64,000 nt of DNA from Arenibacter arenosicollis (lineage in GTDB: Bacteria > Bacteroidota > Bacteroidia > Flavobacteriales > Flavobacteriaceae), in the NCBI RefSeq assembly GCF_014397245.1, contig NZ_JACLHY010000010.1, forward strand, positions 1-64,000, read 5' to 3'. The stretch's first letter is position 1, and each line of letters opens with the position of its first letter. The notes below the pieces were generated by a model. That model made no database searches and was not told the origin of the DNA. It saw nothing but the letters and a program-made list of their open reading frames with translations. This document shows, in pieces, positions 34,299 to 57,841 of this stretch. A program made the translations under genes and the position numbers.

Positions 34299-34303
34299 TA
34301 CGA

Positions 34304-35606: not shown

Positions 35607-36746
35607 TTATTTATCTTCTTTAAGCATAGATACCGTTGCTACGGTCCTAAATCCTAAATGCTCCAATGAGGAATCCAGACTGGAAGCCATTCTAGAGGAT
35701 ATCCTATAACTGGCGCAATAAGAAGCATTGCAAAGAAAAGAACCGCCTCTCATTACCTTCTCCCTTGCATAGGGCATATTTGGATTATAAGGATTGGTTG
35801 CCCCCTGAGGATTTACAACAGGACCGTTTATTGCATTTAATTCGTTATAATAATTGGTATTGTACCAATCACTGGTCCATTCCCAAACATTACCGGCCAT
35901 ATCATATAGTCCAAAATCGTTTGGAGGGTACGATTTTACCCTTGCGCGTTGTTCAAAACCGTCCGCTTTACTATTATTAACAGGAAATTCTCCTTCCCAT
36001 GTATTAGCCATTTGCGACAAAACAGTATCGTCATCTCCCCAAAAGTATATACTTTCCGGCTTATTGCCCCTTGCGGCTCTTTCCCATTCTGCCTCTGTGG
36101 GCAATCTTCTACCTGCCCATTGGCAATATGCCAAGGCATCTTCATAGGCCACTTGGACAACTGGGTCGTTATCTTTGCCTTTAATAGAACTTCCTGGGCC
36201 ATTAGGTTGCTTCCAGTTAGCTCCAATGGTCCAGTTCCACCATTGAGAAAAGTCATAAAGGTTGGGAACCGAGGTCTTAGTCTTCTTAAACGTTAATGAG
36301 CCAGGTTGTAAAATTGAATCGTGCGGTTTAGGCGTTCCTTCAGGAACTTGGGTTTTCATTTCCTCCCAATCTATGGCGCGCTCAGCAATAGTAATATATC
36401 CTGTTTCCTTTACGAATTTTGCAAATTGTGCATTGGTTACCTCTGTAATATCCATAAAAAAACCATCGACCTTTACCTTGTGGGCCGGCTTTTCATGATC
36501 CATGGCCATTTTATCCTGGGGTACTGCACCCTGTATAAACTCCCCTCCCGGGATCCACACCATTCCTTCCGGAGCCTTTATATTTTCCGGTTTTTCAACC
36601 AAAATGGGGGTAGTATCAATTTTGGATTCCACGACCTCCGACATGGGGGCATTAACGTCTTTTTCGTCGGATGACTTTTTTTCCTCCTTACACTGAATCA
36701 ACAATCCCACTAAAAGAAGGGCACTTAATAGCTTATAATATTGCAT
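35607..36746 (-). CDS. Formylglycine-generating enzyme (SUMF1-type) lipoprotein
   Basis: A 379-residue protein with a lipobox LIQC (C19) and an acidic/Ser linker to about residue 57. The FGE-sulfatase domain follows: GMVWIPGGEF, ITEVTNAQFAKFV, GRRLPTEAEWERAARG and YDMAGNVWEW. Both catalytic cysteines of true FGE are present, C339 and C344 in RGGSFLCNASYCASYR, with the same 5-residue spacing as human FGE C336/C341. It should oxidise the CxPxR cysteine of sulfatases to formylglycine outside the cytosol. It is the last gene of the PUL enzyme operon, which also encodes such a sulfatase. A fatty anchor is unusual relative to the cytosolic anSME system. Confidence 0.9.
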   Translation of the reverse strand: MQYYKLLSALLLVGLLIQCKEEKKSSDEKDVNAPMSEVVESKIDTTPILVEKPENIKAPEGMVWIPGGEFIQGAVPQDKMAMDHEKPAHKVKVDGFFMDITEVTNAQFAKFVKETGYITIAERAIDWEEMKTQVPEGTPKPHDSILQPGSLTFKKTKTSVPNLYDFSQWWNWTIGANWKQPNGPGSSIKGKDNDPVVQVAYEDALAYCQWAGRRLPTEAEWERAARGNKPESIYFWGDDDTVLSQMANTWEGEFPVNNSKADGFEQRARVKSYPPNDFGLYDMAGNVWEWTSDWYNTNYYNELNAINGPVVNPQGATNPYNPNMPYAREKVMRGGSFLCNASYCASYRISSRMASSLDSSLEHLGFRTVATVSMLKEDK

Positions 36747-36791
36747 TCTAATTTATTTATGATTCTGCAAATGTAAAGAACGAAAATCATT

Positions 36792-37751
36792 CTATTCCCC
36801 TTGTGGAATAAATTTCATATCATAAGTGGTTGAAGCCACTTTCATAATCGCATTGTATATATAGTCGCAGACTTGTTTCTGACCTTCAAAATTAATAAGG
36901 TCTACCGTATCTTCGGGGGTGTGATACTGTGGATGACCACCAGTATGGATACCTAGAACAGAAATATTCTTTTTATAGAAAGAGACATGGTCTGAACCTC
37001 CCACCGAACCTGCATGAATTACAGGTGACAGCCCCAAAGGCGGTCCCAATTCCTTCATCAATTCCACTCCCCCAGGAAAGGTTCCCGCTCCCCCCATATA
37101 AACCTGTTTGGCTTCGTTTAACCTGCCTACCATATCCATATTTATCATTAGTTTGATGTTAGATAAGGGTACAACCGGATTATCGGCAAAATATTTACTG
37201 CCCAATAGCCCTTGTTCCTCGGCTCCAAAGGCAACCAACAAAACACTTCTTTTTAACTCTGCCCTATGCGCCCATAATTTCTCCCCTATTTCCAATAGGG
37301 CCGAAGTGCCACTTGCATTGTCGTCCGCACCATGATGGATGTCTATCCTTTCGGATTTTGAGGAGGGGCCACCACCCATACCTAAATGGTCGTAATGGGC
37401 TCCAAGTACAATATATTCATTCTTTAAATTGGGGTCATTTCCTACAATAACACCTATAACATTCCAAGTTTTAGCTTCCTTTTTGGGCATCAGCCCTTTC
37501 TTTACCCTTAATTGGGCCATAAAAGGTTGTTTATAAGATTTCAAATAGGAAGGAATATTGGATCCCTTAAAATCCTTTTTAATATAGTTTACAATCCTTT
37601 TATTGACCTTTCCTCCAGGATAACGACCTGAATTTTTATCAGAGGTTAAATAGGTAATATGTTCTTTCAGTTCATCGGTAGTAATATCTTCCTGTGCGAT
37701 GCAAATATTGAACCAACTGCCCAACAAGAAAATTGCAATAATTAATTTCAT
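36792..37751 (-). CDS. Secreted M28 family metallopeptidase
   Basis: A 319-residue di-zinc peptidase with an N-terminal signal peptide (to about residue 20, CIAQ). The metal ligands and catalytic residues are in place: H119 in GAHYDH, D143 in HHGADDNASG, E178/E179 in FGAEEQG, D206 in NMDMVG and H277 in QYHTPED. It should remove N-terminal residues from peptides in the periplasm. The ATG at 37751 avoids overlap with the GH20 gene; a longer frame to 37796 would mask the signal peptide. Its place between FGE and GH20 suggests that the glycan substrate carries peptide. That is inference. Confidence 0.9.
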   Translation of the reverse strand: MKLIIAIFLLGSWFNICIAQEDITTDELKEHITYLTSDKNSGRYPGGKVNKRIVNYIKKDFKGSNIPSYLKSYKQPFMAQLRVKKGLMPKKEAKTWNVIGVIVGNDPNLKNEYIVLGAHYDHLGMGGGPSSKSERIDIHHGADDNASGTSALLEIGEKLWAHRAELKRSVLLVAFGAEEQGLLGSKYFADNPVVPLSNIKLMINMDMVGRLNEAKQVYMGGAGTFPGGVELMKELGPPLGLSPVIHAGSVGGSDHVSFYKKNISVLGIHTGGHPQYHTPEDTVDLINFEGQKQVCDYIYNAIMKVASTTYDMKFIPQGE

Positions 37752-37764
37752 ATATCGATGTTCT

Positions 37765-39396
37765 TTACTTCTTTTCTTCAAATTTTGCCTTTTCAAAATT
37801 CATCGGCAAACTTATGCCCTGACCTCTCCATCTAATCAACAATCGGTCTAAATTGGAACGGAAAACACTATAATCTTTTCTAGTTTTGGATGTCCAACCC
37901 ACTTCTGCATAAGCGGCCAACCTAGGAAAAACCATTTTGTCCATGTCAATGGCTTCAGGAATCCATTCTCCCCACATTTGGCACCCGCTCCCAATAACTT
38001 TGTCGTGAAATCTTTCTTCCAATCCTTCAGGAATGGGGTCAAAACTATAGGACTTTTCCAATGGGATAGATTTATAGGAATAGTCCAAATAGGTATATTC
38101 ATGATATGAATTTACTATATCATATCCGTCGTGAACCGCTTTAGATATCAAATCCAAATTCCCTTTCCAAAAATGGACCAAGGTATTTTTGGCTAAGCTT
38201 TTTTTGACCTCCATGTCCGTAGCTTCCTGCCATTCATGTACATTTTCTCCAAGAATTTCATTCCAGCCCATCATTCGGTGCCCATTCTGATTTAAATAAT
38301 TCGAGATTTTGTTTGTGAAAAAAATATGCAAGTCAGCTGGAGATGTCAATCCGTTTTCTTTAATGAAATTTTGAATTTCCACTGAAGATTTCCATGCATC
38401 AAATTTTACTTCATCACCGCCAATATGGATTATATTACTAGGAAATAATTCCATAACCTCTGAAAGTACATTTTCAAGAAACTCGTACACCCGTGGATCG
38501 GACACATTAAAAGAATCTGGGAGCTTCCCAAAAACGGTAGGTACCTCCTTGATTTCCCCAATAGTTCCCAACCAAGGATATGCGGCAATAGCTGCAGATG
38601 CATGACCGGGCATTTCGATTTCAGGAATAATAGTAATTTGTCTTTCGTTGGCGTATGCAATAATATCCTTAATCTCTTCCTGGGTATAATATCCGGAATG
38701 AGGGGTGTTAGACCTTTCTGCGCTATCCCAACCCCCTATTTGGGAATTGTTCCTGAAAGATCCAATTTCCGTCAATTTGGGATACTTTTTTATTTCCAAT
38801 CGCCATCCTTGATCATCGGTCAAATGCCAGTGGAACACATTCATTTTTAGAAGTGCCATCTGATCTAATAGTTTTTTTACCTGTTCAGTCCCTTTAAAAT
38901 ATCGACTTTCATCCAACATAAATGCACGCCAGCTAAATCTTGGACCATCTTCGATGCTGATCCCGGAAATTGAAAGGTTCCCATTATCACTATCCTCCCC
39001 AATTAACTGCCTAAGGGACATTATACCATAAAAAACTCCAGTAGATGTTCCAGCTGAAATTGATATGGCACTATTAGCAACCTTTAAGACATATCCCTCT
39101 TCCCCTAATTTCTGGGCTAATCCAGGGTCGAGGGTAAGGATGATTCCTTTTCCCCCTTTTCTTTTGATTTTCAGTTCTTTCTGATATTCAACTTTCAATA
39201 ATTCTTGTAGATAGCTTGCATTTTGTTGGTTGGGACTGTCAGCTATTATAGGCGTATTGGAAGTAATAATATACTTCCCTTCTTTCAAATCCACACTCAA
39301 AGGTTGTGGAATTATTCCAGTGTTTTGTCCGATACTAGATATAGCCCAAAATAAAACCAAAGGCAAAACAATTCTAATGTTCTTCATTTTTTTCAA
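37765..39396 (-). CDS. Beta-N-acetylhexosaminidase, GH20
   Basis: A 543-residue secreted glycosidase. The signal peptide runs to about residue 24. A GH20b-type domain covers about 26-150, and the catalytic barrel starts at GPRFSWRAFMLDESRYF. The catalytic Asp-Glu pair is D328-E329 in HIGGDEV. Other landmarks are HWHLTDDQGWRLEI and PEIEMPGHASAA. GH20 enzymes release terminal beta-linked GlcNAc or GalNAc by substrate-assisted catalysis. The gene sits 13 bp from the peptidase and 60 bp from the sulfatase in one operon. Periplasmic location is expected. Confidence 0.94.
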   Translation of the reverse strand: MKKMKNIRIVLPLVLFWAISSIGQNTGIIPQPLSVDLKEGKYIITSNTPIIADSPNQQNASYLQELLKVEYQKELKIKRKGGKGIILTLDPGLAQKLGEEGYVLKVANSAISISAGTSTGVFYGIMSLRQLIGEDSDNGNLSISGISIEDGPRFSWRAFMLDESRYFKGTEQVKKLLDQMALLKMNVFHWHLTDDQGWRLEIKKYPKLTEIGSFRNNSQIGGWDSAERSNTPHSGYYTQEEIKDIIAYANERQITIIPEIEMPGHASAAIAAYPWLGTIGEIKEVPTVFGKLPDSFNVSDPRVYEFLENVLSEVMELFPSNIIHIGGDEVKFDAWKSSVEIQNFIKENGLTSPADLHIFFTNKISNYLNQNGHRMMGWNEILGENVHEWQEATDMEVKKSLAKNTLVHFWKGNLDLISKAVHDGYDIVNSYHEYTYLDYSYKSIPLEKSYSFDPIPEGLEERFHDKVIGSGCQMWGEWIPEAIDMDKMVFPRLAAYAEVGWTSKTRKDYSVFRSNLDRLLIRWRGQGISLPMNFEKAKFEEKK

Positions 39397-39456
39397 TAAT
39401 TGCTATTTAAAATCATTTAACAGGAAGTTCTTTGCAGATAATATAATTCCATTTCT

Positions 39457-41013
39457 TCACAGACCTTCACTAAGGGCCGGAATCCTAAACTTTTCAATAG
39501 TGGGTTCCGTATGCTGACTTTTTAATATTTTGGCAGCTCTCTCCAGAATCTCTGGATGTTGATCCGCGACGTTTGTAGTTTCTTTTAAATCTTTCTTCAG
39601 GTTGAATAATTCCAGTTTTGGTTCATTTTTTTTGTCCTTCAAATGGGATTTCACCACTTTCCAATCGCCCATTCGGATGGCCAATTGCCCCCCATATTCT
39701 GGAAACTCCCAATACAGGAAGTCGTGATCCTTTTGATCCTCCCTAGAAAGCAAGGTAGGTAGAAAACTTACTCCATCGGTATAACCTGGTTTTTCATAAC
39801 CTGCTACATCAGCCAATGTGGCCATAACATCATAGTGTACGGAAATATGATCGGTTGTGGTTCCAGGCTTTATGTTTCCGGGCCATGAAGCTATCATGGG
39901 CACCCGAATTCCACCTTCGTATACAAATCCCTTTCCTCGCCCCTGCTCGCTCCTAAAAGGTTTGGCACTATCAAACCATGGCGAGTCCGAACCTCCATTA
40001 AAAGTAGGACCATTGTCCGAGGTAAAAATAATCAAGGTGTTTTCGTATAGACCGTCGGCCTTCAACTTCGCTACTAATTTGCCTACATTTTCATCCAAAT
40101 AGGAAACCATGGCAGCGTAACCGGCATGGGGATTTTGATGTGGGAAATAACCTCTTTCTCCCAAATATGGTTCTTCTTTCCCAAACTTGTTCTTATAATA
40201 GTCTACCCATTTTTGGGGAGCTTGGATAGCCGCATGTGGAATTGGGGTAGCCCAATAAATAAAAAATGGTTTTTCCTTGTTCCTATCTACAAACCCTTTT
40301 AGCTCCTCAAACATAAGATCGGGCGCATAATCGTTCAAGGTAAAGGGTGCATAACTTTCTGGTTCATTTATATCCGCCCCTTTGGCCAATTTAGTATTAG
40401 GTGCAATGGTATCATTATTCAAATGCACTCTATTTTCATTTTTATAAAGATGCAACGGGTAGTAGGTGTGGGCTTGTCGTTGGCAGTTATACCCGAAAAA
40501 ATAATCAAAGCCCATTTTTGTAGGAATGGATTGGGTATGAGGTGCTCCAAGTCCCCATTTCCCAAATATGGCCGTGTTATATCCAACTCCTTTCAGCTTT
40601 TTAGCAATTGTCATGGTACTATCCGGCATAGGTCGTTGTCCTTCCAAAACGGAATCCTTGGCCATTGCTTTGTAATTCCAAACCTCACCCCGTTCTCCCC
40701 ATTCTTCATTGCCTCGAATATAGGCATGTCCAGAATGTGTCCCGGTAAGCAACATGTAACGTGCTGGGGCGCAAACAGGGGCACTGGTATAGTGCTGGGT
40801 AAACAACATACCCTCCTTTGCCAGGGCGTCTATATTAGGGGTTTCTATTTTTTCCTGTCCGTAGGCACCCAATTCGGCGTACCCCAGATCATCGGCCAAA
40901 ATGTAGATGATATTTGGTTTTACTGATGGAGTACTACTAACATCTTTTTTAGCTTCATCCTTACAGCTTAATAAGGCAAATGGAATTAAAATTAGAGCAA
41001 TTAATTTATTCAT
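39457..41013 (-). CDS. Type I sulfatase, Cys-type, lipoprotein
   Basis: A 518-residue arylsulfatase-family enzyme with a lipobox ALLSC (C17). Metal ligands D41-D42 lie in ILADDLGY. The formylglycine site is C81 in the CxPxR consensus VCAPARYMLLTG, K152 is in FGKWGLG, and the later Asp-Asn pair is in FTSDNGPTF. Cys-type sites require FGE, which this operon encodes. The phrases GHAYIRGN and CQRQAHTYYP remind me of SulfAtlas S1_16-like exo-sulfatases acting on 4-sulfated Gal or GalNAc; that subfamily assignment is memory-based and unverified. Periplasmic desulfation of an oligosaccharide is the likely role. Confidence 0.93.
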   Translation of the reverse strand: MNKLIALILIPFALLSCKDEAKKDVSSTPSVKPNIIYILADDLGYAELGAYGQEKIETPNIDALAKEGMLFTQHYTSAPVCAPARYMLLTGTHSGHAYIRGNEEWGERGEVWNYKAMAKDSVLEGQRPMPDSTMTIAKKLKGVGYNTAIFGKWGLGAPHTQSIPTKMGFDYFFGYNCQRQAHTYYPLHLYKNENRVHLNNDTIAPNTKLAKGADINEPESYAPFTLNDYAPDLMFEELKGFVDRNKEKPFFIYWATPIPHAAIQAPQKWVDYYKNKFGKEEPYLGERGYFPHQNPHAGYAAMVSYLDENVGKLVAKLKADGLYENTLIIFTSDNGPTFNGGSDSPWFDSAKPFRSEQGRGKGFVYEGGIRVPMIASWPGNIKPGTTTDHISVHYDVMATLADVAGYEKPGYTDGVSFLPTLLSREDQKDHDFLYWEFPEYGGQLAIRMGDWKVVKSHLKDKKNEPKLELFNLKKDLKETTNVADQHPEILERAAKILKSQHTEPTIEKFRIPALSEGL

Positions 41014-41208
41014 AACAGTTTTTTCTGGTTTGTGGCTTGGCGCCTTTTTTATCTAATAACTAAAGTCTTGATTCTATTTTCTTTTCTCTTTTTTTAAGGC
41101 TTATGGCTCTGAGCAATCAATATTATTTTATTATCTATTCCTCGCTTTCCATTCCCTTTAGCTTATTTACCAATTTTCAAAATAACACATTTCCAAATCA
41201 TTAAATTT

Positions 41209-42606
41209 CTATTGCATTGGTTTTTCCAATAATGAAAATTCTATATCCGGAGCTATTCCGTTGGCCGTCCTTTCATGGAAAGTGTCCATTGTAGTTTTTT
41301 CATCAAAAAAACCACAGTTCTTCATAAAAAATTTGTTCCCAATGGCACCCCCTGCATAATCTTCCCTTGATCCCTTTCTTGCCGTGGCGTCCGCCGTAAA
41401 TTTAGCACTGGTAAGTTCGTGCCAATTGCCCTTGGTATCGTAAATCCATTGATTGGTATATTCCCCCATTCTGGATAAATGGCCCACTTCGGTCCGGAAA
41501 TTCTCTAGAAATGAATGTGGCCTGGTTAAATAGGTACTGGTATGTGGTCTTCTAAAACCGGCAATCAAATTCCATTTATCAGTTTCCGGGTCAAAGAAAT
41601 ATGCCGTATAATCCGTTGAATTGTTCACCGAAGGCTCCCCTTTCAATAAAAATTTATACGTGTTTCCGGCCTTCCAATTAAACACTTTATAACTTTGTCC
41701 ACCTGAACCTTCATTCCCAAATTCGCCCGTAGTTACTCCCTCCCCCTTTCCTAACATAATTATTTTATAATCGTCCGGGATATTTTTAGGGTCTTGGGTT
41801 TCGAACGGACTCCATGCGGAAAAAAGAACTCTTCTTTCAGTTTCCGAATTTACTTGCATTCCAAAATAACCTTCACCAAAGCCATTGGCCATATAATAGG
41901 ATCCTATTACGTCCTCATTTTCGGGTACCGTTATTTCATTATAAAACCACAGAATTTCCGTGTTGGCCGGAGTGGTATAGGACAAATGGACCGATGGGCC
42001 CCTTCTTCCCCAATAAAAATCCTCCTTTACGTAGGTAAGGCTGCCATTTGCTGCTTGCCCACCAATTAGTACCTCACTAACTTCCGCAAAAGTGTTTCCT
42101 GTTTTTTCCAAACCTTGCAGTTCCAAAAAATGGTACCCCGGTTCGCTAATCTTAAAGGTTCCCACCTCCACTATTTCAATATCCCTGTTGGAAACTTCAA
42201 CTTCTTTGACCGTTCCATCCAATGAGACTTTTAGTTTGGAGTTGCCAGTGGACACCTTAAGCTTTAGTCCAACATTCAATGAACCAATTTGGTCGGTCTT
42301 AAAATAGGTTCGAATAGTAGTATTCCCATCATTCCAATTGCGTATCCCCTTATCGGAAATAAGCTCTTGATTTTCTTCCACATTATTTACTACCCAACTA
42401 TTACCCCCAGGATTTATTGCTTCGGTAAAAATTAATTTTTCCTGAATATTTTCTTCCGGAACATCTTGCTTGGACAATGTGGTACATGACCAAACACATA
42501 GCAGCAAGGTAATTACAATACTATTTTTATATCCAATAAAAGGTGTTGCAACAATCTTGGTAAATGTATTTGAGACGGTAGTTCCAATATTTGTTTTTTC
42601 TTTCAT
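41209..42606 (-). CDS. DUF5077 plus DUF3472 domain protein, exported
   Basis: A 465-residue protein. From the ATG at 42606 it has an N-terminal hydrophobic stretch ending VWSCTT, a probable lipoprotein signal, although some 20 residues precede it. A DUF5077-like beta domain (about residues 60-190: AINPGGNSWVVNN, YHFLELQGLEKTG) and a DUF3472 domain (about 195-450: DFYWGRRGPSVHLSY, GYFGMQVNSETERRVLFSAW, FLLKGEP, FMKNCGFFDE) follow. Both are carbohydrate-locus domains of unknown activity, possibly lectin-like. The longer frame to 42654 would touch the HTCS stop and is rejected. It is the first structural gene after the HTCS regulator. Confidence 0.82.
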   Translation of the reverse strand: MKEKTNIGTTVSNTFTKIVATPFIGYKNSIVITLLLCVWSCTTLSKQDVPEENIQEKLIFTEAINPGGNSWVVNNVEENQELISDKGIRNWNDGNTTIRTYFKTDQIGSLNVGLKLKVSTGNSKLKVSLDGTVKEVEVSNRDIEIVEVGTFKISEPGYHFLELQGLEKTGNTFAEVSEVLIGGQAANGSLTYVKEDFYWGRRGPSVHLSYTTPANTEILWFYNEITVPENEDVIGSYYMANGFGEGYFGMQVNSETERRVLFSAWSPFETQDPKNIPDDYKIIMLGKGEGVTTGEFGNEGSGGQSYKVFNWKAGNTYKFLLKGEPSVNNSTDYTAYFFDPETDKWNLIAGFRRPHTSTYLTRPHSFLENFRTEVGHLSRMGEYTNQWIYDTKGNWHELTSAKFTADATARKGSREDYAGGAIGNKFFMKNCGFFDEKTTMDTFHERTANGIAPDIEFSLLEKPMQ

Positions 42607-42653
42607 TATAATTATTATGGTTGTTTCAATTTTTATATCCCTAAATCCAATCA

Positions 42654-48434: not shown

Positions 48435-48549
48435 GCTCCTCTCCAATTTAACCCTTGAAATAATATGAACGGAAGTATTTAAACGATTTTAAAACGACAA
48501 GAATTTTTCAAATTTTAACATCAACCGATTACTAATTTAAACTAGATCA

Positions 48550-51500
48550 ATGAAAAAACCACTTATTTGTTTATTAACTCTAATTTTGAGTATAGTGCAC
48601 TTGGCCCAGGCTCAGAATATAACGGTCCAAGGAACCGTTTACGACGACAATGGAGTTCCATTACCCGGCGCTTCCGTGGTAGTCAAGGGAACCTCTACAG
48701 GTACTCAATCCGATTTTGATGGTAACTTTTATATAGACATTAAGGGACCAGAATCTATTTTAGCTGTTTCCTACCTTGGCTTTAAACCACAGGAAATCCA
48801 AGTTGGAAACCAAACACAGATCAACATCACCTTGGCTCCTGATGCTACCCAATTGGACGATGTAGTTTTAATTGGTTACCAAAAAGTATTTAAAAGAGAT
48901 GTCACCAGTGCTGTTTCCAGTATTAAGAGCGACGATATTGAAGGAATACCGGTTTTGGATGTATCAGGATTGATCGCTACCCAGGCAACTGGAATCCAAA
49001 GCGTAAATATGACTGGTGCACCAGCAGGTAGAGGAGCCCTAATTATTCGTGGTAATACCAGTATAGGTGGAGATATCGATGCAGATTTGGCCTATAGTAG
49101 CCCCTTATACGTTATTGATGGGGTACAGACCAGTCTTGAGGATTTGGCCGGTTACGGTGTCTCCAACGTAGATTTTTTGGCCTCGCTTAACCCTAACGAC
49201 ATAGCGAGCATAGATGTTCTAAAAGATGCTTCGGCCGCAGCAATTTACGGATCTAGGGGTGCTAATGGAGTTATCATCATTGAAACAAAAAAAGGTGCAG
49301 CTCTGGACAAACCGGAATTCTCTTTTTCCACCAGCTTAGGATTGCAACCAAAACCAAACTTGGTCCCGATCTTGGTAGGGGGGGCAGAACGCCGTACCAA
49401 AATGGAAATGATCCAAAGATGGTGGCATACCGACGAATTGCAAAGTGGACAAACTCCAATGGTCTTGACCGATAGTATAAACCCCGCGTTTAACAACAAT
49501 GTTGATTATCAAGGTTTGTTCTACAAGACCGGTATTGACCAACAATACGACTTTAGTGTTAGGGGTGGAAGTGAAAAAACCAACTACAGAATGTCCTTGG
49601 GTTATGATAACCAGGAAGGTGTCATAAAAGGAACCGGGGTTGACAGGGTAACTTTTTCCTCTAATCTTAATTTTAAGGCAGGTGAAAAATTCAGGAATCA
49701 ATTAATTACCAGATTCACCCATACCGATCTGCAAACAGGCCAGGGAAATCCTTATCAAGGAAGTTTTAACCTTAACTCGTCCCTGCCTGTAAATCCGGCC
49801 GGACTTCAATCTTCCCTATTCTATCTTACCGATGAAAGAAGGCAGTCCTTAAGCGGGGAACTGGAAGGCAAGTTGAACGAGGATAAGACTGTAAACTTTA
49901 CTATTTCCAACTTTGCCACCTATGATCTATTGGACGGTCTTAGCCTAAATTCACAACTAAGTTTCGTCTACGATAGTAATAAAAAGAACTTCTATGAGCC
50001 TTCCACTATACGGACAGAAAGAGATGGTTTTGCCAGTTATGCCTTATATAATCGTAAGAACTTGACGGCCGAGACCTATTTAAGCCTATTTAAAAACCTT
50101 GGGGCAAATAATGACCATGAGGTTACTGGAGTATTGGGAAATAGGATAGATTACAACAAATACGAGGATATGGCCTTGACCGCCTTTGGATTTGGAAGTG
50201 ATGCCATACAAACCATCAACAATAGATATACCCAAGACCAGATAGGCGGATATACGGATATCAGTGCCAATGCCTTAGTATCTTATTTTGGTCGTGTAAG
50301 TTATAAATTCAAGAATCGTTATATGGTAGGAGGAAACTTCAGTATCGATGGTTCTTCCAGGTTTGGTAAAGATGTACGTTGGGCCAAGTTCCCTTCCTTT
50401 AATGCGGGTTGGGTTATTTCCGATGAGCCTTTTCTTAAACCTCATATTTCCAATTTTATAGATTATTTAAAAATTAGAGGTAGCTGGGGTATCAACGGGA
50501 AGCAATTTCCAGAAAACTACCTTCGTTTTGGAAAATACAATCTAGGTTACGGTGGTAATGTACATTGGGCAAACCAAATGAATGTTTCCAGTTATGGCGG
50601 GGTAACCGGCGTTATTCCAAATTATGACCAAATTGGCAATGCGTCCCTTTCTTGGGAGGAAACCAAACAATGGAATATCGGTTTTGACCTGGATATGTTC
50701 AACAGAAGGGTAAGTTTGGCATTTGATGCCTATAACAAGAGTACGGATAAGCTATTTTTTGACGTTGCCTTCCCTGCCTATTCCGGGTACAACTCAGCCC
50801 CTACCAACGTAGCAGGTGTATTAAACTACGGTTGGGAGTCTATGCTTCGTTACCATGTTTTTCCACGAACCAATGACCTGAGGTTGGAATTGTCCGCAGG
50901 TTTTGCGCAAAACAAAAATTACATTTCCAAATTGCCTAATGGCAACCAGGATTACATTGGAGGAGATTACGGTTATGTTGTAGGTCGCCCTATAAACCTC
51001 TATAAAATGTTTATTAATGATTATATCATTGATGATCTAGATCAATTGCCTGTAAACCCATTTACTGGAGAACCTTTACAAGGTAAATCCGCTTGGGCCA
51101 ACATCCGACCAGGTTTTCCAATATGGCAGGATCTTAACGGGGATTATTTACTTAATGAGGAGCACGATCTAAAATTAACGACAGACTATTCTCCTATTCC
51201 CGATATTACAGGTTCCTTCAATATTAACTTACAGTATAAAAAATGGTACTTCCAGGCCTACAGCCAATTCTCCTTCGGAGCTGATATAAAGAATACTGTT
51301 CTTAACAGTTATATGGATAGCTATGATAGAGGTGGTGATTCCTGGGCAAGAAACGGACTTGCGGACCTCAGTGAATATACATTCTGGCAACAACCCGGTG
51401 ATGGTGCTGCTGGTGTAGACTTTCCTGCACTATATCCACAGAGTCCAACACTTGGAGCATTTTACGGCTTCAGGGGCAATCAGACCCTTTGGATAGAAAG

Positions 51501-51741
51501 TGGCGATTATTGGAAAGTTAACAATGCTTCAATTGGATACACCTTTGACCAGAACGATAACTTCATGAAGAACATTGGACTATCTCGATTAAGAATCTAC
51601 GGAGCAATGTTAAACCCATACCAATGGCAGAGATCTAAAAAGGTTGTAGATGCCTCCATGGTAGATGCCAAAGGACATACCTATGGTAACGGATATCCAC
51701 AGGCAAGGACAATCACTATTGGAATTGACACAAAATTTTAA
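48550..51741 (+). CDS. SusC/RagA family TonB-dependent transporter of the PUL
   Basis: A 1063-residue outer-membrane importer. The signal peptide runs to about residue 21 (AQAQ), with a carboxypeptidase-regulatory-like domain (TVQGTVYDDNGVPLPGASVV, about 24-95). The plug has the family hallmark IYGSRGANGVIIIETKKG near 234-251, and the beta-barrel ends ARTITIGIDTKF. It imports the PUL oligosaccharide, with its SusD lid encoded 10 bp downstream. The operon continues with fasciclin and DUF5007-like lipoprotein genes and ends at the terminator at 55115-55164. Confidence 0.95.
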   Translation: MKKPLICLLTLILSIVHLAQAQNITVQGTVYDDNGVPLPGASVVVKGTSTGTQSDFDGNFYIDIKGPESILAVSYLGFKPQEIQVGNQTQINITLAPDATQLDDVVLIGYQKVFKRDVTSAVSSIKSDDIEGIPVLDVSGLIATQATGIQSVNMTGAPAGRGALIIRGNTSIGGDIDADLAYSSPLYVIDGVQTSLEDLAGYGVSNVDFLASLNPNDIASIDVLKDASAAAIYGSRGANGVIIIETKKGAALDKPEFSFSTSLGLQPKPNLVPILVGGAERRTKMEMIQRWWHTDELQSGQTPMVLTDSINPAFNNNVDYQGLFYKTGIDQQYDFSVRGGSEKTNYRMSLGYDNQEGVIKGTGVDRVTFSSNLNFKAGEKFRNQLITRFTHTDLQTGQGNPYQGSFNLNSSLPVNPAGLQSSLFYLTDERRQSLSGELEGKLNEDKTVNFTISNFATYDLLDGLSLNSQLSFVYDSNKKNFYEPSTIRTERDGFASYALYNRKNLTAETYLSLFKNLGANNDHEVTGVLGNRIDYNKYEDMALTAFGFGSDAIQTINNRYTQDQIGGYTDISANALVSYFGRVSYKFKNRYMVGGNFSIDGSSRFGKDVRWAKFPSFNAGWVISDEPFLKPHISNFIDYLKIRGSWGINGKQFPENYLRFGKYNLGYGGNVHWANQMNVSSYGGVTGVIPNYDQIGNASLSWEETKQWNIGFDLDMFNRRVSLAFDAYNKSTDKLFFDVAFPAYSGYNSAPTNVAGVLNYGWESMLRYHVFPRTNDLRLELSAGFAQNKNYISKLPNGNQDYIGGDYGYVVGRPINLYKMFINDYIIDDLDQLPVNPFTGEPLQGKSAWANIRPGFPIWQDLNGDYLLNEEHDLKLTTDYSPIPDITGSFNINLQYKKWYFQAYSQFSFGADIKNTVLNSYMDSYDRGGDSWARNGLADLSEYTFWQQPGDGAAGVDFPALYPQSPTLGAFYGFRGNQTLWIESGDYWKVNNASIGYTFDQNDNFMKNIGLSRLRIYGAMLNPYQWQRSKKVVDASMVDAKGHTYGNGYPQARTITIGIDTKF

Positions 51742-51751
51742 TAATAAAACT

Positions 51752-53296
51752 ATGAAACAGATGAAGAGTTTTAAAATATATATCATGGTCCTGTGCCTAC
51801 TTGGCGCTGTGAGTTGTACAGATTTGCTGGACCAGGAGCCGATAAGCATTACCCATCCCGATGTATTTTGGGATAGCCAAGCCAATGCAGAGCAAGCCGT
51901 AGCAGGAGCTTATGGTCTTTTTAAGGAAGCCATTATGACCCAATCCAATTTCCTTTATTGGGGAGAGTGGACCGGGATGACCTTTATGAACAGTCGTAAC
52001 TGGATCGTAAACTATATTGAAGGTAGTGGTAATTACGTCTTGGCATATAGAGATGCATCCATCAACTGGAAAAACTTCTATAGAGCAGCTAACTGGGCCT
52101 ATACTATAGAACAATATGTGAACGATATGCCTGTGGAAATGTTCGATTCCAAGACCGAAAAAGATAGGATTTTAGGAGAAGCAGCGTTCATTAGATCACT
52201 GACCTATTTCTATATGGCCCGTATCTGGGGAGATGTACCTGTCGTGGAGCAATCCATTGAAAGTTCTGACCAACTTATCAGTGAAGATGGATATATCGTT
52301 GAGACTCCAAGGGTGGACGAGCTGGAAGTGTTGGATTATGCGCTTGAAGCTGTTAACAAATCCATTGGATTATTACAGTACTCAACTCCTGGTGCCTCCA
52401 ATTGGGCCATAACTGCCAACAAGGCAAGTGCAGAAGCATTAAAAGCCCATATTACCCTTTGGTATGCGAGCAGGGATAACGATAATGTGGAGATGATACA
52501 GCAATCCATAGACGCCACTACAGCGGTAATCAACAATAGCGGTGCTAGTTTAATAGATTATTTAAATGAAGGTAAGGATGGTTTTGATGAAATGTGTATA
52601 GGTCAATCCAAGACAGGTTTATTCGAAATTAATATCAGCGCGGAGATGAACGAATCCTTTAGGTTGTTACAATATGACGATAACCATACCGGGCTTACCC
52701 TGAATTACCCTGTTTGGCAGAGCGTAAATACTGGTATTAGCCCTTATATTGATCCTGATTTTTATGGGAATGAGATGATGGCCACAGATGCAGATAGGTC
52801 CAACGATGTTCGTAAAGATCTTTTCTTTTATGAATATGGGACCAATGCAGATTACTCCTATCTTCAGAAATATTCGCATTCTGAACAAGATCCAGCTTCC
52901 GAAGATGCCTATGCGCAATTTTCAGAATCCAATATTCTAATTTTCAGATTGGCAGATATGTACTTACTAAGAGCAGAGGCCAATGCCCGAAAAGGGGTAT
53001 CAGGTCCTGCAATTTCAGATCTAAATACCATAAGAAGTAAGGCCAATGTACCTGATTACACCGGAGGAACAGACCGCGAATCCCTAATGAAAGCCATTTT
53101 TGACGAACGCGCTATAGAGTTTGTTGGTGAAGCTCAATCGGGTTATGACAGAATTAGGATGGATTATTATGACGGAGTGCCATGGGTAAATCAAGCAAGA
53201 AATGCCAAAAAAGGATATTTCTGGCCTGTCCATCCATCGGTTATATCCAGGAATCCTTCCATTATTCAAACCGAATATTGGAGAGGTAAATTGTAG
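51752..53296 (+). CDS. SusD/RagB family glycan-binding lipoprotein of the PUL
   Basis: A 514-residue SusD homologue starting at the ATG at 51752 (MKQMKSFKIY); the longer frame from 51665 lies within susC. The lipobox is AVSC (C near residue 21), followed by TDLLDQEPISITHPDVFW, the typical SusD opening. TPR-like repeats follow (AEQAVAGAYGLFKEA, ILGEAAFIRSLTYFYMARIWGDVP) and the C-terminal DERAIEFVGEAQSGYDRIRM segment. It is the surface lid that captures oligosaccharides for the SusC barrel encoded just before it. Confidence 0.94.
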   Translation: MKQMKSFKIYIMVLCLLGAVSCTDLLDQEPISITHPDVFWDSQANAEQAVAGAYGLFKEAIMTQSNFLYWGEWTGMTFMNSRNWIVNYIEGSGNYVLAYRDASINWKNFYRAANWAYTIEQYVNDMPVEMFDSKTEKDRILGEAAFIRSLTYFYMARIWGDVPVVEQSIESSDQLISEDGYIVETPRVDELEVLDYALEAVNKSIGLLQYSTPGASNWAITANKASAEALKAHITLWYASRDNDNVEMIQQSIDATTAVINNSGASLIDYLNEGKDGFDEMCIGQSKTGLFEINISAEMNESFRLLQYDDNHTGLTLNYPVWQSVNTGISPYIDPDFYGNEMMATDADRSNDVRKDLFFYEYGTNADYSYLQKYSHSEQDPASEDAYAQFSESNILIFRLADMYLLRAEANARKGVSGPAISDLNTIRSKANVPDYTGGTDRESLMKAIFDERAIEFVGEAQSGYDRIRMDYYDGVPWVNQARNAKKGYFWPVHPSVISRNPSIIQTEYWRGKL

Positions 53297-53326
53297 GCTA
53301 ATTTTAAGAATAAAAAAACAATAACG

Positions 53327-53971
53327 ATGAAAAAAATAATAATCATATTAACCGCCGTCGTAGTTCTTTACTCCTGTGATAAGGATGGAAACTACCTCAT
53401 AGACGGTGGCATCAGTAGTTCTGAAGTCGGAACAACCACCATGGAATTTTTCAAATCTCATAGTCAATTGGATACTTTGGCAATTTTAATCGAAAAAGCG
53501 GGAATGGCAGATTTGGTGAATGGAAACAACACCATCTTTGCTCCCAATAACCTTTCCATTAAGAATTACGTCAATAGTGTTTTGGCCGATATGAGGGAGA
53601 CAGATCCAGAAGCGGAATATACCGTAAACGATATTCCTTTAGACACTCTAACCAAATATATGGGAGGTTACATTTTTTCCGGAAAAATTAAAAGGGAAAA
53701 CATGACCAAAGAACAAGGGAAAATCTATACTGCCGAGAATGGTGAAGAAAGAAGAATTTCTTTGGAACCAACAGATCAATATAATAATGAGTTGGATTCC
53801 AAACCCGAATATGTTTATTTCACTTATAAACAAGGGGATGATTGGGACGAATGGGATAACATTGATGATGACGATAAGGTGGTGGTAAAAACCTCCAATT
53901 TAATCTCTACCAATGGAGTGATACATGTCCTTCAGGGAAACCATACTTTATTCAATTTCGAAAGGGACTAA
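53327..53971 (+). CDS. Fasciclin domain surface lipoprotein
   Basis: A 214-residue lipoprotein (lipobox VLYSC, C17) with a FAS1-like domain over most of its length: FFKSHSQLDTLAILIEKAGMADLVNG, the H1-like NNTIFAPNN, and an ending with TNGVIHVLQGN. FAS1 domains mediate binding to other proteins or glycans. It lies 30 bp after susD in the SusCD operon, the position of SusE/F-type accessory surface proteins, so it may help hold the substrate. An Asp-rich insert near residues 167-187 is specific to this protein. Confidence 0.85.
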   Translation: MKKIIIILTAVVVLYSCDKDGNYLIDGGISSSEVGTTTMEFFKSHSQLDTLAILIEKAGMADLVNGNNTIFAPNNLSIKNYVNSVLADMRETDPEAEYTVNDIPLDTLTKYMGGYIFSGKIKRENMTKEQGKIYTAENGEERRISLEPTDQYNNELDSKPEYVYFTYKQGDDWDEWDNIDDDDKVVVKTSNLISTNGVIHVLQGNHTLFNFERD

Positions 53972-53993
53972 TAAAAACCATAAAAACAAAAAG

Positions 53994-55085
53994 ATGAAAA
54001 ACATATTATATTCCATACTGATCATTATCGTAATGGTTGCATCTTGTCAGCCGCCGGAAGTGGGCTATATCAGTGACAATATACATGCCTTGGAAGATAC
54101 CATTGCCGTTCCACGCGGGGTGTTTAAAGTTGGGGCTGCCCCAGCCATAGAAGGATCTACCTATCCTTTAAAATGGGAGATTACCAGTATAACGGATGCC
54201 CAGGGCAACCCTACCAATGACCTGTACGACGAGTACGAGCTTTTAACTTGGAAATCCGCTTTTAATGCGGAGACCGACACTACTTTGGCCTTGGTAGAAG
54301 AAAAGTTGGAATTAGGGGATTATCCAACTATTATGATCAATGAAGTGAGTGGACAATTGGCCTTTACCCAGGCCAGTAAGTTTGTAACCAATAATGACAT
54401 TTTCAAAATAAACGTAAAAGCCAGCAATGTAAGGGGTGAGCGTCAATTGGATGACTTTGTTATTGTAAAATTGGATGATTTTCAACCGGTTGAATTCCCA
54501 ACAGAAATGCGTTCAAGACTACAGTTGGGCAAAGGTGGTGGAGCATATGACATTGCCTATACCTCTACCATTATGAACGATTTTGACGACGGAGTACCCA
54601 GTGTTTTGGATGGTACACACCCATACATCACTGTAACCAAAGTAAGCGAGGAGCCCGCTTTGGGCGTAAAGGTAAAAATGATTATTGCCGACAGTTATGA
54701 TAAACCCTTAAATCCTGAAAAGGTTGTCTTCTATCCCTCCGGATCAACCTACCTTCAAAACTATCATGACAATTCCATTGACACGGAAATAGATGCAACT
54801 GGTTCTACATTCTCGTTACCTGCACCACCGTTTCCTCAGTACGGAAGAACGTATACTACAGGGACCAACTCCTATTTAATGTATTACCTGACCACGGATG
54901 ATGCCTTTACAGTAGATACGGAAGCCTTCGAAGCCGATAATGGACCCAAGGACTGGACTCCATATTTAGATCCAGAAACGGGAGAGATAATGAATAGAGC
55001 CTATATCCGATGGGGAATAAAAATAAACGATTCCGGTACCTGGGAGATTAAAATGAAAATCCCATACACAAAAGTTAAGGAATAA
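53994..55085 (+). CDS. DUF5007-like surface lipoprotein
   Basis: A 363-residue lipoprotein from the ATG at 53994 (MKNILYSILIIIVMVASCQ, cysteine about 18). The mature protein starts PPEVGYISDNIHALEDTI and is beta-rich, with GVFKVGAAPAIEGSTYPLKWEI and NAYIRWGIKIND-like strands. It resembles the DUF5007 family that I associate with fasciclin-containing SusCD operons; this is recalled, not searched. A cell-surface glycan-binding role is plausible from position only. The gap to the fasciclin gene is 22 bp. It is the last gene before the terminator at 55115-55164. Confidence 0.7.
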   Translation: MKNILYSILIIIVMVASCQPPEVGYISDNIHALEDTIAVPRGVFKVGAAPAIEGSTYPLKWEITSITDAQGNPTNDLYDEYELLTWKSAFNAETDTTLALVEEKLELGDYPTIMINEVSGQLAFTQASKFVTNNDIFKINVKASNVRGERQLDDFVIVKLDDFQPVEFPTEMRSRLQLGKGGGAYDIAYTSTIMNDFDDGVPSVLDGTHPYITVTKVSEEPALGVKVKMIIADSYDKPLNPEKVVFYPSGSTYLQNYHDNSIDTEIDATGSTFSLPAPPFPQYGRTYTTGTNSYLMYYLTTDDAFTVDTEAFEADNGPKDWTPYLDPETGEIMNRAYIRWGIKINDSGTWEIKMKIPYTKVKE

Positions 55086-55114
55086 TTTAATCTAAAAAAT
55101 AAGTAGAATCTAAG

Positions 55115-55164
55115 AATGGTTTGTAATGGCGCAACTTTAGCTCCCATTTCAAACCATTTTTTTT
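55115..55164 (+). terminator. Intrinsic terminator of the SusCD operon
   Basis: AATGGTTTG (55115-55123) pairs with CAAACCATT (55150-55158), with further inner pairing, followed by TTTTTT. It lies 30 bp after the DUF5007-like stop, so the PhoD-like gene is probably transcribed separately. Confidence 0.8.
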
Positions 55165-55222
55165 ATCTATTTTTAGCCTAGGATGCAGTAATAATGCTTA
55201 CCCCCAACAGAATAAATACAGC

Positions 55223-57841
55223 ATGAACAGAAGAAAATATATAAAGACCATTGCCCTGGGAACCCTATTGCCCAGCTTTTCCGCTTCGGCATTCCCATTT
55301 GGATCAGTTGGCCAAATAAAATCGTTGGAAGAAATACAGTTTAAGAGCAATTGGCACAACTGGCCAGATATGAAATGGGTAGGTCCCGAATATTGGGGAA
55401 ACCGATTGCAGGATTGGCGACTTACAAATGGGACCGTTGTTTGCAACATTAGTGCTGAAAATAGAAACCTTCAATTATTGACCGTTCAAAAAACGGATTA
55501 CCTGTCTCCATTGACGGTAAGCGTGGACATAAACTTAATGAATAAAAATATTTCACCAGCCGATGAAGGTTGCTTGGGAATGCGATTGGGATGTAAAGGT
55601 CCCTTTGAGGATTACAGGTCAGCTGCCGTTTTTGGCAAGGGATTAAATATAGGACTTAACCCCAGTGGTACCCTACAGGTAGCAGATCAAACCTTCGAAA
55701 CTAACCTGAAACAAATAGCGAATAACTACAAATTGGTGGCAGAGTTTAGGCCTTCAGAAAATAAATACCAATTAAAAGTTTTGATACTGGATGCCGTAAC
55801 CGATCAACTTATACATGCCCAGGAAAACATAGCCATTGATGCTACCAGTGTTGTAGGTAATTTTGCCCTGCTCTCTGATTTAAAAACGGCTAAGAGCCAC
55901 GTATCCCAACCTTCTGCAGCATTTTCCAATTGGAGTATAGCTGCGGATAATCTTGTTTCAAACAACGACCAATTATACGGTCCTATTTGTTTTGCACAAT
56001 ATACCCTACACGGAAATAAATTGAAACTCACGGCACAATTAGCTCCTATTGAAGAGATTGATGGCCACTCCGTTATCCTACAATTCAAGGAACAAGGAAT
56101 TTGGAAAAACAGAAAAAACACCAAATTGGAGCATATTGGCAGGGCAGTGAACTTTGTAATTGAAGATTGGAACGCCAACACGGATATTCCGTATCGTATT
56201 TTGGTAGAAATTCCTTTAAAAAACGAAACCCACCAATACACTTACGACGGAACCATAGCCCAAGAACCAATGGACAAGGATGCAGTTTCTGCCGCTGTTT
56301 TTAGCTGTAATTTTCACTATGGTTTTCCAGATAACGACGTCCAAGAAAATGTATCCAAATTAAATTCTGATATTGTACTTTTCCTAGGTGATCAGTTTTA
56401 CGAGGGCACCGGTGGATATGGAGCAGAACGCAGTGGTGACCTGGACGACCTATGTTTGGATTACTTGCGAAAATGGATGATGTTCGGTTGGTCTTACCGG
56501 GAATTGTTTAGGCACAAACCCTGCGCCATTATCCCTGATGATCATGATGTATATCACGGCAATGTTTGGGGTGAGAGTGGAAAAAAGGCCGATACCAGTG
56601 AAGGACATGGAATGTTGGCACAGGATTCGGGTGGATATAAAATGCCTGCCGAATGGGTTAATATGGTCCAATTTACACAAACCAGTCATTTACCGGATCC
56701 CTACGACCCTACCCCAGTACAACAGAATATCGGTGTTTATTATACAACTTGGAACTACGGCGGACTTAGTTTTGCCATCTTGGAGGACCGAAAATTCAAA
56801 TCGGCACCCAAGCATGTTTTGCCACCTGAGGCCAAGGTTAGAAATGGATGGATACAAAACAAAGAATTCGATATAAAACAACACCGGAACCTGGATGCTG
56901 TACTTTTGGGAAAACGACAGCACAATTTTATTGATCATTGGACCCAAGATTGGAACAATAGTGTAGAAATGAAAGTGGTACTTTCCCAGACCAATTTTGC
57001 CACTGTGGCGACCTTACCAAAAACTGCCCTTAATGATGATGTGGTTCCCTCCTTGCCGATTCCCAAAAAAGGGGAATACGTTTTGGGCGATGTTCCTACC
57101 GTGGACATGGATTCCAATGGTTGGCCGGCAAACGAAAGGGATAAAGCAGTAAAGGCCATTCGGAAATGTTTTGCCTTTCAGATTGCCGGAGATCAGCATT
57201 TAGGAAGTTTTATCCAATACGGCATTGATCAACATGGCGACAGTGGTTACGCTTTTGCTGGGCCAGCATTAAACAATATTTGGCCACGTAGATTCTGGCC
57301 AGAAGTAAAAAGCGATCAACACACCTACGAAAATCCCTCCTATGTGGGTAATCATGAGGACGGATTTGGGAATAAAATATCTGTCCATGCCGTAGGCAAT
57401 CCTTTCAATACGGGGATTGAGCCTGCCATGGTTCACAATAGGGCCACAGGATATGGCTTGGTAACCTTCAATAAAAAAGAAAGAACCATAACTACGGCCT
57501 GTTGGCCTAGATATGCCGACCCCATAAGCGATAAAAATGAGCAATTCCCAGGATGGCCAATCACTATAAAACAAGAGGACAATTATGGTCGTAAAGCTGT
57601 TGCTTGGTTACCAAAAATAAAAGTTGCAGGAAAGCTTAAACCGGTGATTTCGGTTTTTGATCAAAATAACCGGCTGGTTTATTCAATAAGAATGGCAACA
57701 AACACCTTTGCCCCCAAAGTCTTCGATGGAGGAAAATATACCATCGTTATCCAGGATGTGGAAAACGATAAAAGTAGGACCTTAAAAAATATCAGGGCTA
57801 AAAGAGTAAATAAAAAGGTTATTGAAATTGACCTTATTTAA
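55223..57841 (+). CDS. Tat-exported PhoD-like metallophosphatase with N-terminal beta domain
   Basis: An 872-residue protein. The twin-arginine signal NRRKYIKT is followed by a beta-rich N-terminal part of about 220 residues (lamin-G-like in rhythm) and an Ig-like linker (about 250-345). The PhoD/metallophosphatase catalytic region then has SCNFHYGF (361-368), LGDQFYEG (388-395), IPDDHDVYHGN (437-447) and AGDQHLGS further on. PhoD enzymes are periplasmic phosphodiesterases or phosphomonoesterases that need Fe and Ca; Bacillus PhoD attacks teichoic acid. Its place beside the PUL hints at a phosphorylated substrate moiety, though its own transcription unit leaves this open. It is much longer than typical PhoD. 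Confidence 0.85.
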   Translation: MNRRKYIKTIALGTLLPSFSASAFPFGSVGQIKSLEEIQFKSNWHNWPDMKWVGPEYWGNRLQDWRLTNGTVVCNISAENRNLQLLTVQKTDYLSPLTVSVDINLMNKNISPADEGCLGMRLGCKGPFEDYRSAAVFGKGLNIGLNPSGTLQVADQTFETNLKQIANNYKLVAEFRPSENKYQLKVLILDAVTDQLIHAQENIAIDATSVVGNFALLSDLKTAKSHVSQPSAAFSNWSIAADNLVSNNDQLYGPICFAQYTLHGNKLKLTAQLAPIEEIDGHSVILQFKEQGIWKNRKNTKLEHIGRAVNFVIEDWNANTDIPYRILVEIPLKNETHQYTYDGTIAQEPMDKDAVSAAVFSCNFHYGFPDNDVQENVSKLNSDIVLFLGDQFYEGTGGYGAERSGDLDDLCLDYLRKWMMFGWSYRELFRHKPCAIIPDDHDVYHGNVWGESGKKADTSEGHGMLAQDSGGYKMPAEWVNMVQFTQTSHLPDPYDPTPVQQNIGVYYTTWNYGGLSFAILEDRKFKSAPKHVLPPEAKVRNGWIQNKEFDIKQHRNLDAVLLGKRQHNFIDHWTQDWNNSVEMKVVLSQTNFATVATLPKTALNDDVVPSLPIPKKGEYVLGDVPTVDMDSNGWPANERDKAVKAIRKCFAFQIAGDQHLGSFIQYGIDQHGDSGYAFAGPALNNIWPRRFWPEVKSDQHTYENPSYVGNHEDGFGNKISVHAVGNPFNTGIEPAMVHNRATGYGLVTFNKKERTITTACWPRYADPISDKNEQFPGWPITIKQEDNYGRKAVAWLPKIKVAGKLKPVISVFDQNNRLVYSIRMATNTFAPKVFDGGKYTIVIQDVENDKSRTLKNIRAKRVNKKVIEIDLI

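What the first reader, a model, noticed from the sequence alone, without database searches (positions are those of the whole stretch)
35607..57841. Large PUL predicted to target a sulfated amino-sugar glycan, with its own sulfatase maturation
Around one divergent control region lie HTCS, DUF5077/DUF3472, Cys-type sulfatase, GH20, M28 peptidase and FGE on the left, and GH109-like, SusC, SusD, fasciclin, DUF5007-like and PhoD-like on the right. GH20 plus GH109 plus sulfatase points to N-acetylhexosamines bearing sulfate. The peptidase suggests a glycoprotein or glycopeptide, and galK-galT next door suggests galactose release. No endo-acting lyase or hydrolase is present, so the cell would import and trim oligosaccharides. 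The combination is not one I can match to a described PUL.
Basis: partly seen in the sequence, partly recalled or inferred. Interest (0 to 1): 0.72.

Follow-up and report, generated by a model that had tools for sequence, protein, structure and literature searches.

The report
Gene cluster for sulfated GalNAc glycans
A marine bacterium carries a gene cluster that probably removes a sulfate from one exact position of the sugar N-acetylgalactosamine so that a second enzyme, which is expected to need that position free, can cut the sugar off; next to them sits an uncharacterised protein that is predicted to fold like a known mucin-cutting protease.

Summary
The gene list is right. The sulfatase is nearest BT1622, an S1_20 enzyme that prefers 3-O-sulfated GalNAc and whose biological substrate is unidentified; it keeps the galacto-reading His and lacks the Glu/Arg pair of the 3S-Gal enzyme BT1636. 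GH109 BT4243 needs a free 3-OH, so sulfatase and GH109 look like an ordered pair. Outside Arenibacter, GH109 lies within 20 kb of DUF3472 in 14 of 30 copies (0.3 expected) and of S1_20 in 5 of 64 (0.4 expected). Corrections: FGE is not PUL-private; it is the only one of six FGE-family proteins in the genome with both catalytic Cys, and no anSME was found; M28-FGE-galK is a genus-wide block. The importer is swappable: six SusC types at one position in 15 Arenibacter genomes. Best reading: a PUL for 3-O-sulfated GalNAc glycans, perhaps glycoprotein-borne; every activity is inferred.

The parts
39457..41013 (-). S1 sulfatase, BT1622-like (S1_20), lipobox by eye; predicted 3-O-sulfo-GalNAc sulfatase
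   Evidence: PDB search best hit 7ana/7anb E 2.8e-184, listed as BT1622; 55% to BT1622, 40% to BT1636; His kept, Glu/Arg replaced by N/G
46969..48333 (+). GH109 N-acetylgalactosaminidase; twin-arginine-like signal by eye
   Evidence: GH109_C 265.9 bits; 2ixa E 1.7e-147, 52% identity over 429 residues; NCBIfam matches all below their cut-offs
41209..42654 (-). DUF5077 + DUF3472, lipobox by eye; predicted glutamic-peptidase-like fold; candidate endo-acting O-glycopeptidase
   Evidence: Pfam; model pLDDT 87.9; Foldseek: 4qhw, then HC7 mucinase 8.5e-14, then neprosin
42654..46751 (-). hybrid two-component sensor/regulator (HTCS)
   Evidence: Pfam
37765..39396 (-). GH20 beta-N-acetylhexosaminidase; present in 8 of 17 genus loci
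   Evidence: Pfam 358 bits; nearest PDB 8pxu 2.3e-139; genus survey
48550..51741 (+). SusC-like importer, cassette type B
   Evidence: TIGR04056 708 bits; six SusC types at this position in 15 genus genomes
51665..53296 (+). SusD-like lipoprotein
   Evidence: Pfam PF07980, PF14322
53327..53971 (+). fasciclin-domain lipoprotein, probable surface glycan-binding protein of the cassette
   Evidence: Pfam; travels with SusC type B in G203, G250, G021, G115
53925..55085 (+). DUF5007-like lipoprotein, probable surface glycan-binding protein
   Evidence: Pfam 21.1 bits, below cut-off 25; travels with SusC type B
55223..57841 (+). PhoD-like phosphodiesterase/phosphatase, twin-arginine-like signal by eye; role unknown
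   Evidence: Pfam 37.7 bits; no PDB sequence match; in 10 of 12 genus loci read through to its place
36792..37796 (-). M28 peptidase; genus-wide neighbour of FGE, membership of the PUL uncertain
   Evidence: Pfam; beside FGE in 18 of 18 genomes
35607..36746 (-). formylglycine-generating enzyme, lipobox by eye; probably the genome-wide sulfatase maturase rather than PUL-private
   Evidence: 40% to human FGE with both Cys kept; five other family members lack both; anSME 0
33255..35458 (-). galT and galK, part of the flanking FGE-galK block, not of the PUL proper
   Evidence: Pfam
57930..59246 (-). GFO/IDH/MocA oxidoreductase bounding the locus
   Evidence: Pfam; a relative lies directly upstream of S1 in 11 of 40 loci of other genera, and one gene further in one more

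Best explanation
A HTCS-controlled PUL for glycans that carry 3-O-sulfated GalNAc. DUF5077/DUF3472 makes the first cut outside the cell (inferred), a SusCD cassette imports the fragments (family knowledge), the S1_20-type sulfatase removes the 3-O-sulfate (inferred from residues and nearest relative), and this frees the C3 hydroxyl that the NAD-dependent GH109 needs to release GalNAc (inferred from the published requirement of GH109 BT4243). GH20 takes beta-linked HexNAc where present. The carrier is probably a glycoprotein: mucin-like O-glycans, or beta-linked 3S-GalNAc as on sulfated LacdiNAc. FGE serves the whole genome. Shown here: gene content, homology, residues, conserved linkage, predicted-fold similarity. 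Inferred: every activity, the order, and the carrier.
For: S1: best PDB match is BT1622, 55% against 40% to BT1636; His177 equivalent kept, Glu334/Arg353 equivalents are N and G. BT1622 prefers 3S-GalNAc over 3S-Gal, and GH109 BT4243 needs a free 3-OH. BT4243 frees GalNAc from Tn and is blocked by a 3-linked Gal until a GH2 removes it; two Arenibacter loci carry a GH2 in the slot of sulfatase and GH20. Linkage outside the genus: DUF3472-GH109 14 of 30 (0.32 expected), S1_20-GH109 5 of 64 (0.36), DUF3472-S1_20 4 of 30 (0.23). Amino-sugar genes near DUF3472-SusCD in other genera: an AgaS-like SIS protein with class II aldolase and amidohydrolase in G030 and G142, the SIS protein in G250; the SIS protein in 3 and an APH-family kinase (the family of GalNAc kinase BT4240) in 4 of 80 named loci. 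Fold: the 11 Foldseek hits under 1e-3 are 4qhw, eight HC7 chains, neprosin and protease CPAVM1.
Against: No activity, expression or localisation data. BT1622 prefers beta over alpha 3S-GalNAc 14-fold, which fits O-linked alpha-GalNAc poorly. 26 of 30 DUF3472 copies outside the genus have no S1_20 within 20 kb, so sulfate is an optional part. [quoted passage not shown] The window's genome has no AgaS-like match (best 22%) and its kinase-like gene lies on another contig. DUF3472 shares only 16% identity with HC7, its catalytic Glu could not be mapped, and glycan-active enzymes follow just above 1e-3 (3wno, TM 0.16; CBM6 and CBM35 structures weaker). PhoD is not explained. The linkage counts include genomes of one genus (G013/G244, G250/G021, G006/G240), so the p-values are too small.
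Confidence: 0.5

Rival explanations
1. The target is a sulfated marine polysaccharide or bacterial glycan with terminal 3S-GalNAc or 3S-Gal, not a glycoprotein. DUF3472 is a glycoside hydrolase or lyase that cuts the backbone; import and desulfation are as in the best explanation.
For: 4qhw was deposited as a putative two-domain sugar hydrolase; [quoted passage not shown] BT1622 prefers beta-3S-GalNAc; GalNAc occurs in bacterial polysaccharides, for example A. palladensis LPS.
Against: The nearest characterised fold after 4qhw is a mucinase solved with glycopeptides, then neprosin. No such polysaccharide was met in the passages read, but no search was made for polysaccharides as such.
Confidence: 0.3
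2. The locus is a composite without one substrate: an older GFO2-S1-FGE-galK-galT block in which the sulfatase acts on 3S-Gal for the galactose pathway, into which a GH109-HTCS-DUF3472-SusCD PUL was inserted.
For: In 40 S1 loci of other genera FGE is near S1 in 17, galK in 12, and GFO2 directly upstream in 11.
Against: S1_20 sits with GH109 or DUF3472 in other genera without FGE nearby. The Arenibacter S1 does not fall inside the FGE-adjacent clade (quick tree, order unresolved). Residues disfavour 3S-Gal.
Confidence: 0.15
3. Chondroitin-, keratan- or colonic-mucin-type PUL of a described kind.
For: GH20, sulfatase and SusCD are found in such PULs (family knowledge).
Against: No lyase or GH88 family matched any of the 19 proteins of the region scanned against Pfam, and there is one sulfatase only, nearest S1_20; no M60 peptidase in the genome.
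Confidence: 0.05

Closest known systems
B. thetaiotaomicron PUL BT4240-50 (PMC11992087; abstract, sections 6, 11 and 16, and passages read)
   Same: GH109 and SusCD in one PUL with a glycopeptidase (here a candidate); GH109 acts only after the O3 position is uncapped; GalNAc is the product
   Different: O3 is uncapped by GH2 there, by an S1_20-type sulfatase here (predicted); M60 peptidase there, DUF3472 here and no M60 in the genome; sigma/anti-sigma factors there, HTCS here; the GalNAc kinase is not in this locus
BT1622 S1_20 sulfatase (PMC10154612 section 6 and passages; PMC13383068 section 7 and passages)
   Same: 55% identity, same loss of the O2-binding Glu/Arg pair
   Different: BT1622 has Ser at the catalytic position, this one Cys; the natural substrate of BT1622 is not known
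Elizabethkingia GH109 (2ixa)
   Same: 52% identity over 429 residues
   Different: known for blood group A (recalled); not known from a locus with S1_20
HC7 di-glutamate mucinase (PDB titles; passages of PMC13003899; Nat Catal 2024 title only)
   Same: predicted fold; possibly a sugar-binding domain attached (DUF5077, weak CBM-like signals)
   Different: 16% identity; not the same sequence family; catalytic residues not mapped
Arenibacter latericius alpha-AlNaGal, GH109 (PMC4410403, PMC3721217; passages)
   Same: same genus and family; activity on pNP-alpha-GalNAc and A antigen published
   Different: reported 37% to the Elizabethkingia enzyme, where the window's is 52%, so another GH109 subgroup

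Membership tests
Polysaccharide utilization locus | tandem susC and susD with CAZymes and a regulator | tested here: met
Polysaccharide utilization locus | co-induction by one glycan | not testable with these tools
   needs transcriptomics
S1_20 sulfatase, 3S-GalNAc type | formylglycine motif C-x-P-x-R | tested here: met
   CAPARYMLLTG at residue 81; Cys aligned
S1_20 sulfatase, 3S-GalNAc type | nearest to BT1622, His kept, Glu/Arg absent | tested here: met
   residue numbers recalled, register fixed by S77C
S1_20 sulfatase, 3S-GalNAc type | SulfAtlas subfamily profile | not tested
   library not available
S1_20 sulfatase, 3S-GalNAc type | activity on 3S-GalNAc | not testable with these tools
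   needs assay
GH109 | GH109 C-terminal domain and NAD-binding fold | tested here: met
FGE (true sulfatase maturase) | two catalytic Cys of human FGE | tested here: met
FGE dedicated to this PUL | linkage to the PUL across genera and another maturase for the rest of the genome | tested here: not met
HC7-type di-glutamate mucinase | fold | tested here: met
   predicted model against 8pn5: E 8.5e-14, TM 0.61 on the target, 0.44 on the query
HC7-type di-glutamate mucinase | sequence relationship | tested here: not met
   16% identity; profile search of the PDB does not find HC7 at E 10
HC7-type di-glutamate mucinase | two catalytic Glu | tested here: inconclusive
   four invariant Glu (240, 273, 315, 384) in 58 sequences, not mapped to HC7
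BT4240-50-type mucin PUL | M60 O-glycopeptidase | tested here: not met
   0 in the genome
BT4240-50-type mucin PUL | GH109 plus SusCD | tested here: met

The most novel reading that the evidence does not exclude
DUF3472 is a new family of glutamic-type O-glycopeptidases, and this locus is a complete pathway for 3-O-sulfated GalNAc-capped glycoproteins: peptide cut, import, 3-O-desulfation, then GH109. It would give BT1622-type sulfatases their missing natural context and give a function to a domain that also occurs in centipede venoms and in segments of a Drosophila virus.
Probability: 0.25. Interest if true: 0.8.

Novelty: new variant of a known kind. Interest (0 to 1): 0.58.

Why it matters
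[quoted passage not shown] A PUL that pairs a BT1622-like sulfatase with a glycosidase family whose published member needs the desulfated position makes that question testable with assays already in print. DUF3472 is a domain of unknown function; among 7 papers found by its name, Pfam number or PDB codes none is titled as a functional study, and the passages read in three give no function; the HC7 paper is not held and may speak of it. A predicted fold next to mucinase HC7 is a concrete hypothesis for it.

Tried and rejected
Sensor-cassette matching: tested whether the HTCS sensor follows the SusC type. Not supported: permutation p 0.08, and G309/G314 have 94% identical sensors with 27% identical SusC, G304/G307 89% and 25%. 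PUL-private FGE: rejected. Resident sulfatase: whether the Arenibacter S1 is the old FGE-linked copy or came with the PUL is unresolved in a quick tree. AgaS-like route for GalNAc in this genome: not found. Mapping HC7 Glu200 by a profile search of the PDB: HC7 not found. PhoD: no sequence match in the PDB. Promoter and repeat scans of the divergent region gave nothing decisive. The Arenibacter latericius GH109 was considered as the characterised orthologue and rejected. c6, a 440-residue protein near DUF3472 in 6 of the 20 loci first fetched but absent here, modelled poorly (pLDDT 65) and has beta-propeller structures among its weak matches.
Full report
Observation. DUF5007 is below its cut-off. 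The ten best named DUF3472 relatives are Arenibacter, 70-89% identical, so the window is from that genus or one very close; 17 further genomes of its genus were searched.

The sulfatase. The best match among solved structures is 7ana/7anb (E 2.8e-184), which a review lists as BT1622, subfamily S1_20, active on 3S-Gal and preferring 3S-GalNAc (passages). Identity is 55% to BT1622 and 40% to BT1636. BT1636 reads the axial O4 with a His well conserved in S1_20, and O2 with Glu and Arg; BT1622 lacks these two, has a more open pocket and takes GalNAc. In the window's enzyme the His is kept and the two positions are Asn and Gly. The 40 further S1 proteins surveyed keep the His, and none of them has the Glu or the Arg; they were picked by similarity to the window's enzyme, so this is a property of the group and not a test of it. 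A more distant sulfatase beside one of them, 31% identical, does not align there (G203_11).

The ordered pair. [quoted passage not shown] The window's GH109 is 52% identical to the Elizabethkingia enzyme 2ixa. If it shares the requirement, a 3-O-sulfate blocks it and the neighbouring sulfatase frees it. This is inference. In B. thetaiotaomicron PUL BT4240-50 the same position is freed by a GH2 that removes a beta-1,3-Gal before GH109 acts on Tn. In two Arenibacter genomes, G312 and G308, a GH2 takes the place of sulfatase and GH20 between M28 and DUF3472; what that GH2 cleaves is unknown.

The preference of BT1622 for the beta anomer matters. It fits O-linked alpha-GalNAc less well than a beta-linked cap. 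One paper reports that cells can make 3-O-sulfated GalNAc on engineered LacdiNAc, GalNAc-beta-GlcNAc (passage). Sulfatase, then GH109 or GH20, then GH20 would dismantle such a cap. [quoted passage not shown] The natural carrier is thus open.

Linkage in other genera. Three searches of the same 299 family genomes gave 32 DUF3472, 66 S1_20 and 84 GH109 matches at cut-offs of 1e-40, 1e-150 and 1e-120. With the two Arenibacter genomes left out, GH109 lies within 20 kb of DUF3472 in 14 of 30 copies (0.32 expected for random placement), of S1_20 in 5 of 64 (0.36), and S1_20 within 20 kb of DUF3472 in 4 of 30 (0.23) (genome sizes not entered were taken as 3.5 Mb). Some genomes share a genus (G013/G244, G250/G021, G006/G240), so independent events are fewer. 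Amino-sugar genes stand near DUF3472 and SusCD in some genera: a SIS-domain protein that I read as AgaS with class II aldolase and amidohydrolase (Pfam) and two proteins that look like sugar kinases by eye in G030 and G142, and the SIS protein in G250, at the edge of the stretch. Among 80 named loci the SIS protein is in 3 and an APH-family kinase in 4; GalNAc kinase BT4240 is of that Pfam family, but its sequence was not compared. The window's own genome has no such SIS protein and one APH-type kinase gene, 39%, on another contig. 26 of 30 DUF3472 copies have no S1_20 within 20 kb, so sulfate is an optional part of the target.

DUF5077/DUF3472. A model from 58 sequences has pLDDT 87.9. The first match in the PDB is 4qhw from B. 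caccae, uncharacterised and titled putative two-domain sugar hydrolase; the next eight are chains of HC7 (best E 8.5e-14), then neprosin and the protease CPAVM1; no other match is under 1e-3. A cycloisomaltooligosaccharide glucanotransferase follows at 1.1e-3 with TM 0.16, and CBM6 and CBM35 structures at 0.04-0.08, as expected if DUF5077 is CBM-like. HC7 is described as a di-glutamate mucinase of Bacillus cereus acting on Tn and T mucins (passages); its primary paper is known to me by title only. Four Glu are invariant in the 58 sequences. I could not map them on HC7, and sequence profiles do not link the two. DUF3472 as an O-glycopeptidase is thus a hypothesis from predicted fold and gene context. 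The window's genome has no M60 peptidase.

FGE, M28, galK, galT. FGE keeps the Cys pair of human FGE; the five other FGE-family proteins of the genome lack both. No anSME was found. 50 of 52 matches to the Pfam sulfatase family pass the cut-off; one protein is matched twice, the family includes enzymes that are not sulfatases, and I did not check the motif in each. The FGE is in 18 of 18 genus genomes, with M28 beside it in 18 and galK in 17, the other being at a contig end; G304 has a second, 61% copy elsewhere. In 16 genomes of other genera with DUF3472, 14 have an FGE match and only in G142 is it near DUF3472. The FGE therefore most likely serves the whole genome. In 40 S1 loci of other genera FGE is close by in 17, galK in 12, and a GFO2-like oxidoreductase directly upstream of S1 in 11, with one gene between in one more. 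In the window GFO2, S1, M28, FGE, galK and galT are all on the minus strand, with DUF3472, HTCS, GH109, SusCD and PhoD between GFO2 and S1. An insertion of the PUL into an older block is the simplest reading; a quick tree does not settle whether the sulfatase is resident or incoming.

Swappable importer. In 15 genus genomes where SusC after GH109 can be read, six SusC types occur (35% identity or less between types, 87-99% within the commonest, which is the window's and is in 8 of 15), while GH109 stays at 86% or more. Two of the SusC frames are short (745 residues in G303, 962 in G310). G304 and G307 have 96% identical GH109 and 25% identical SusC. HTCS sensors do not follow the type. Whether this reflects other glycans or escape from phages is open.

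Verdict. The sulfated amino sugar is most likely 3-O-sulfo-GalNAc, the maturation is not private, and the supposed lack of an endo-acting enzyme is doubtful. I saw no description of this PUL in the listings of the searches that bear on it in one open library; of the 10 papers listed I read passages in two, and of the 9 in one. Subscription papers are mostly not held.

Noticed in passing
window:48550-55085 and L177-L201: The SusCD cassette after GH109 has been exchanged repeatedly within the genus: six SusC types in 15 genomes at one position, with conserved enzymes around it.
   Followed up: partly
L035:12979-14301 and five more of the 20 loci first fetched: A 440-residue protein without a significant Pfam match (c6) lies near DUF3472 in six loci; model of low confidence, with beta-propellers among its matches. 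Absent in the window.
   Followed up: partly
L247-L286: GFO2-S1_20-FGE-galK is a recurrent block in Flavobacteriaceae, independent of this PUL.
   Followed up: partly
window:55223-57841: A PhoD-like protein is in 10 of 12 genus loci and near DUF3472 in some other genera; a phosphorylated or phosphonate-bearing glycan would explain it, untested.
   Followed up: no
window:25230-28352: A second SusC-like gene (1040 aa, minus strand) lies about 5 kb beyond galT; not part of this locus.
   Followed up: no
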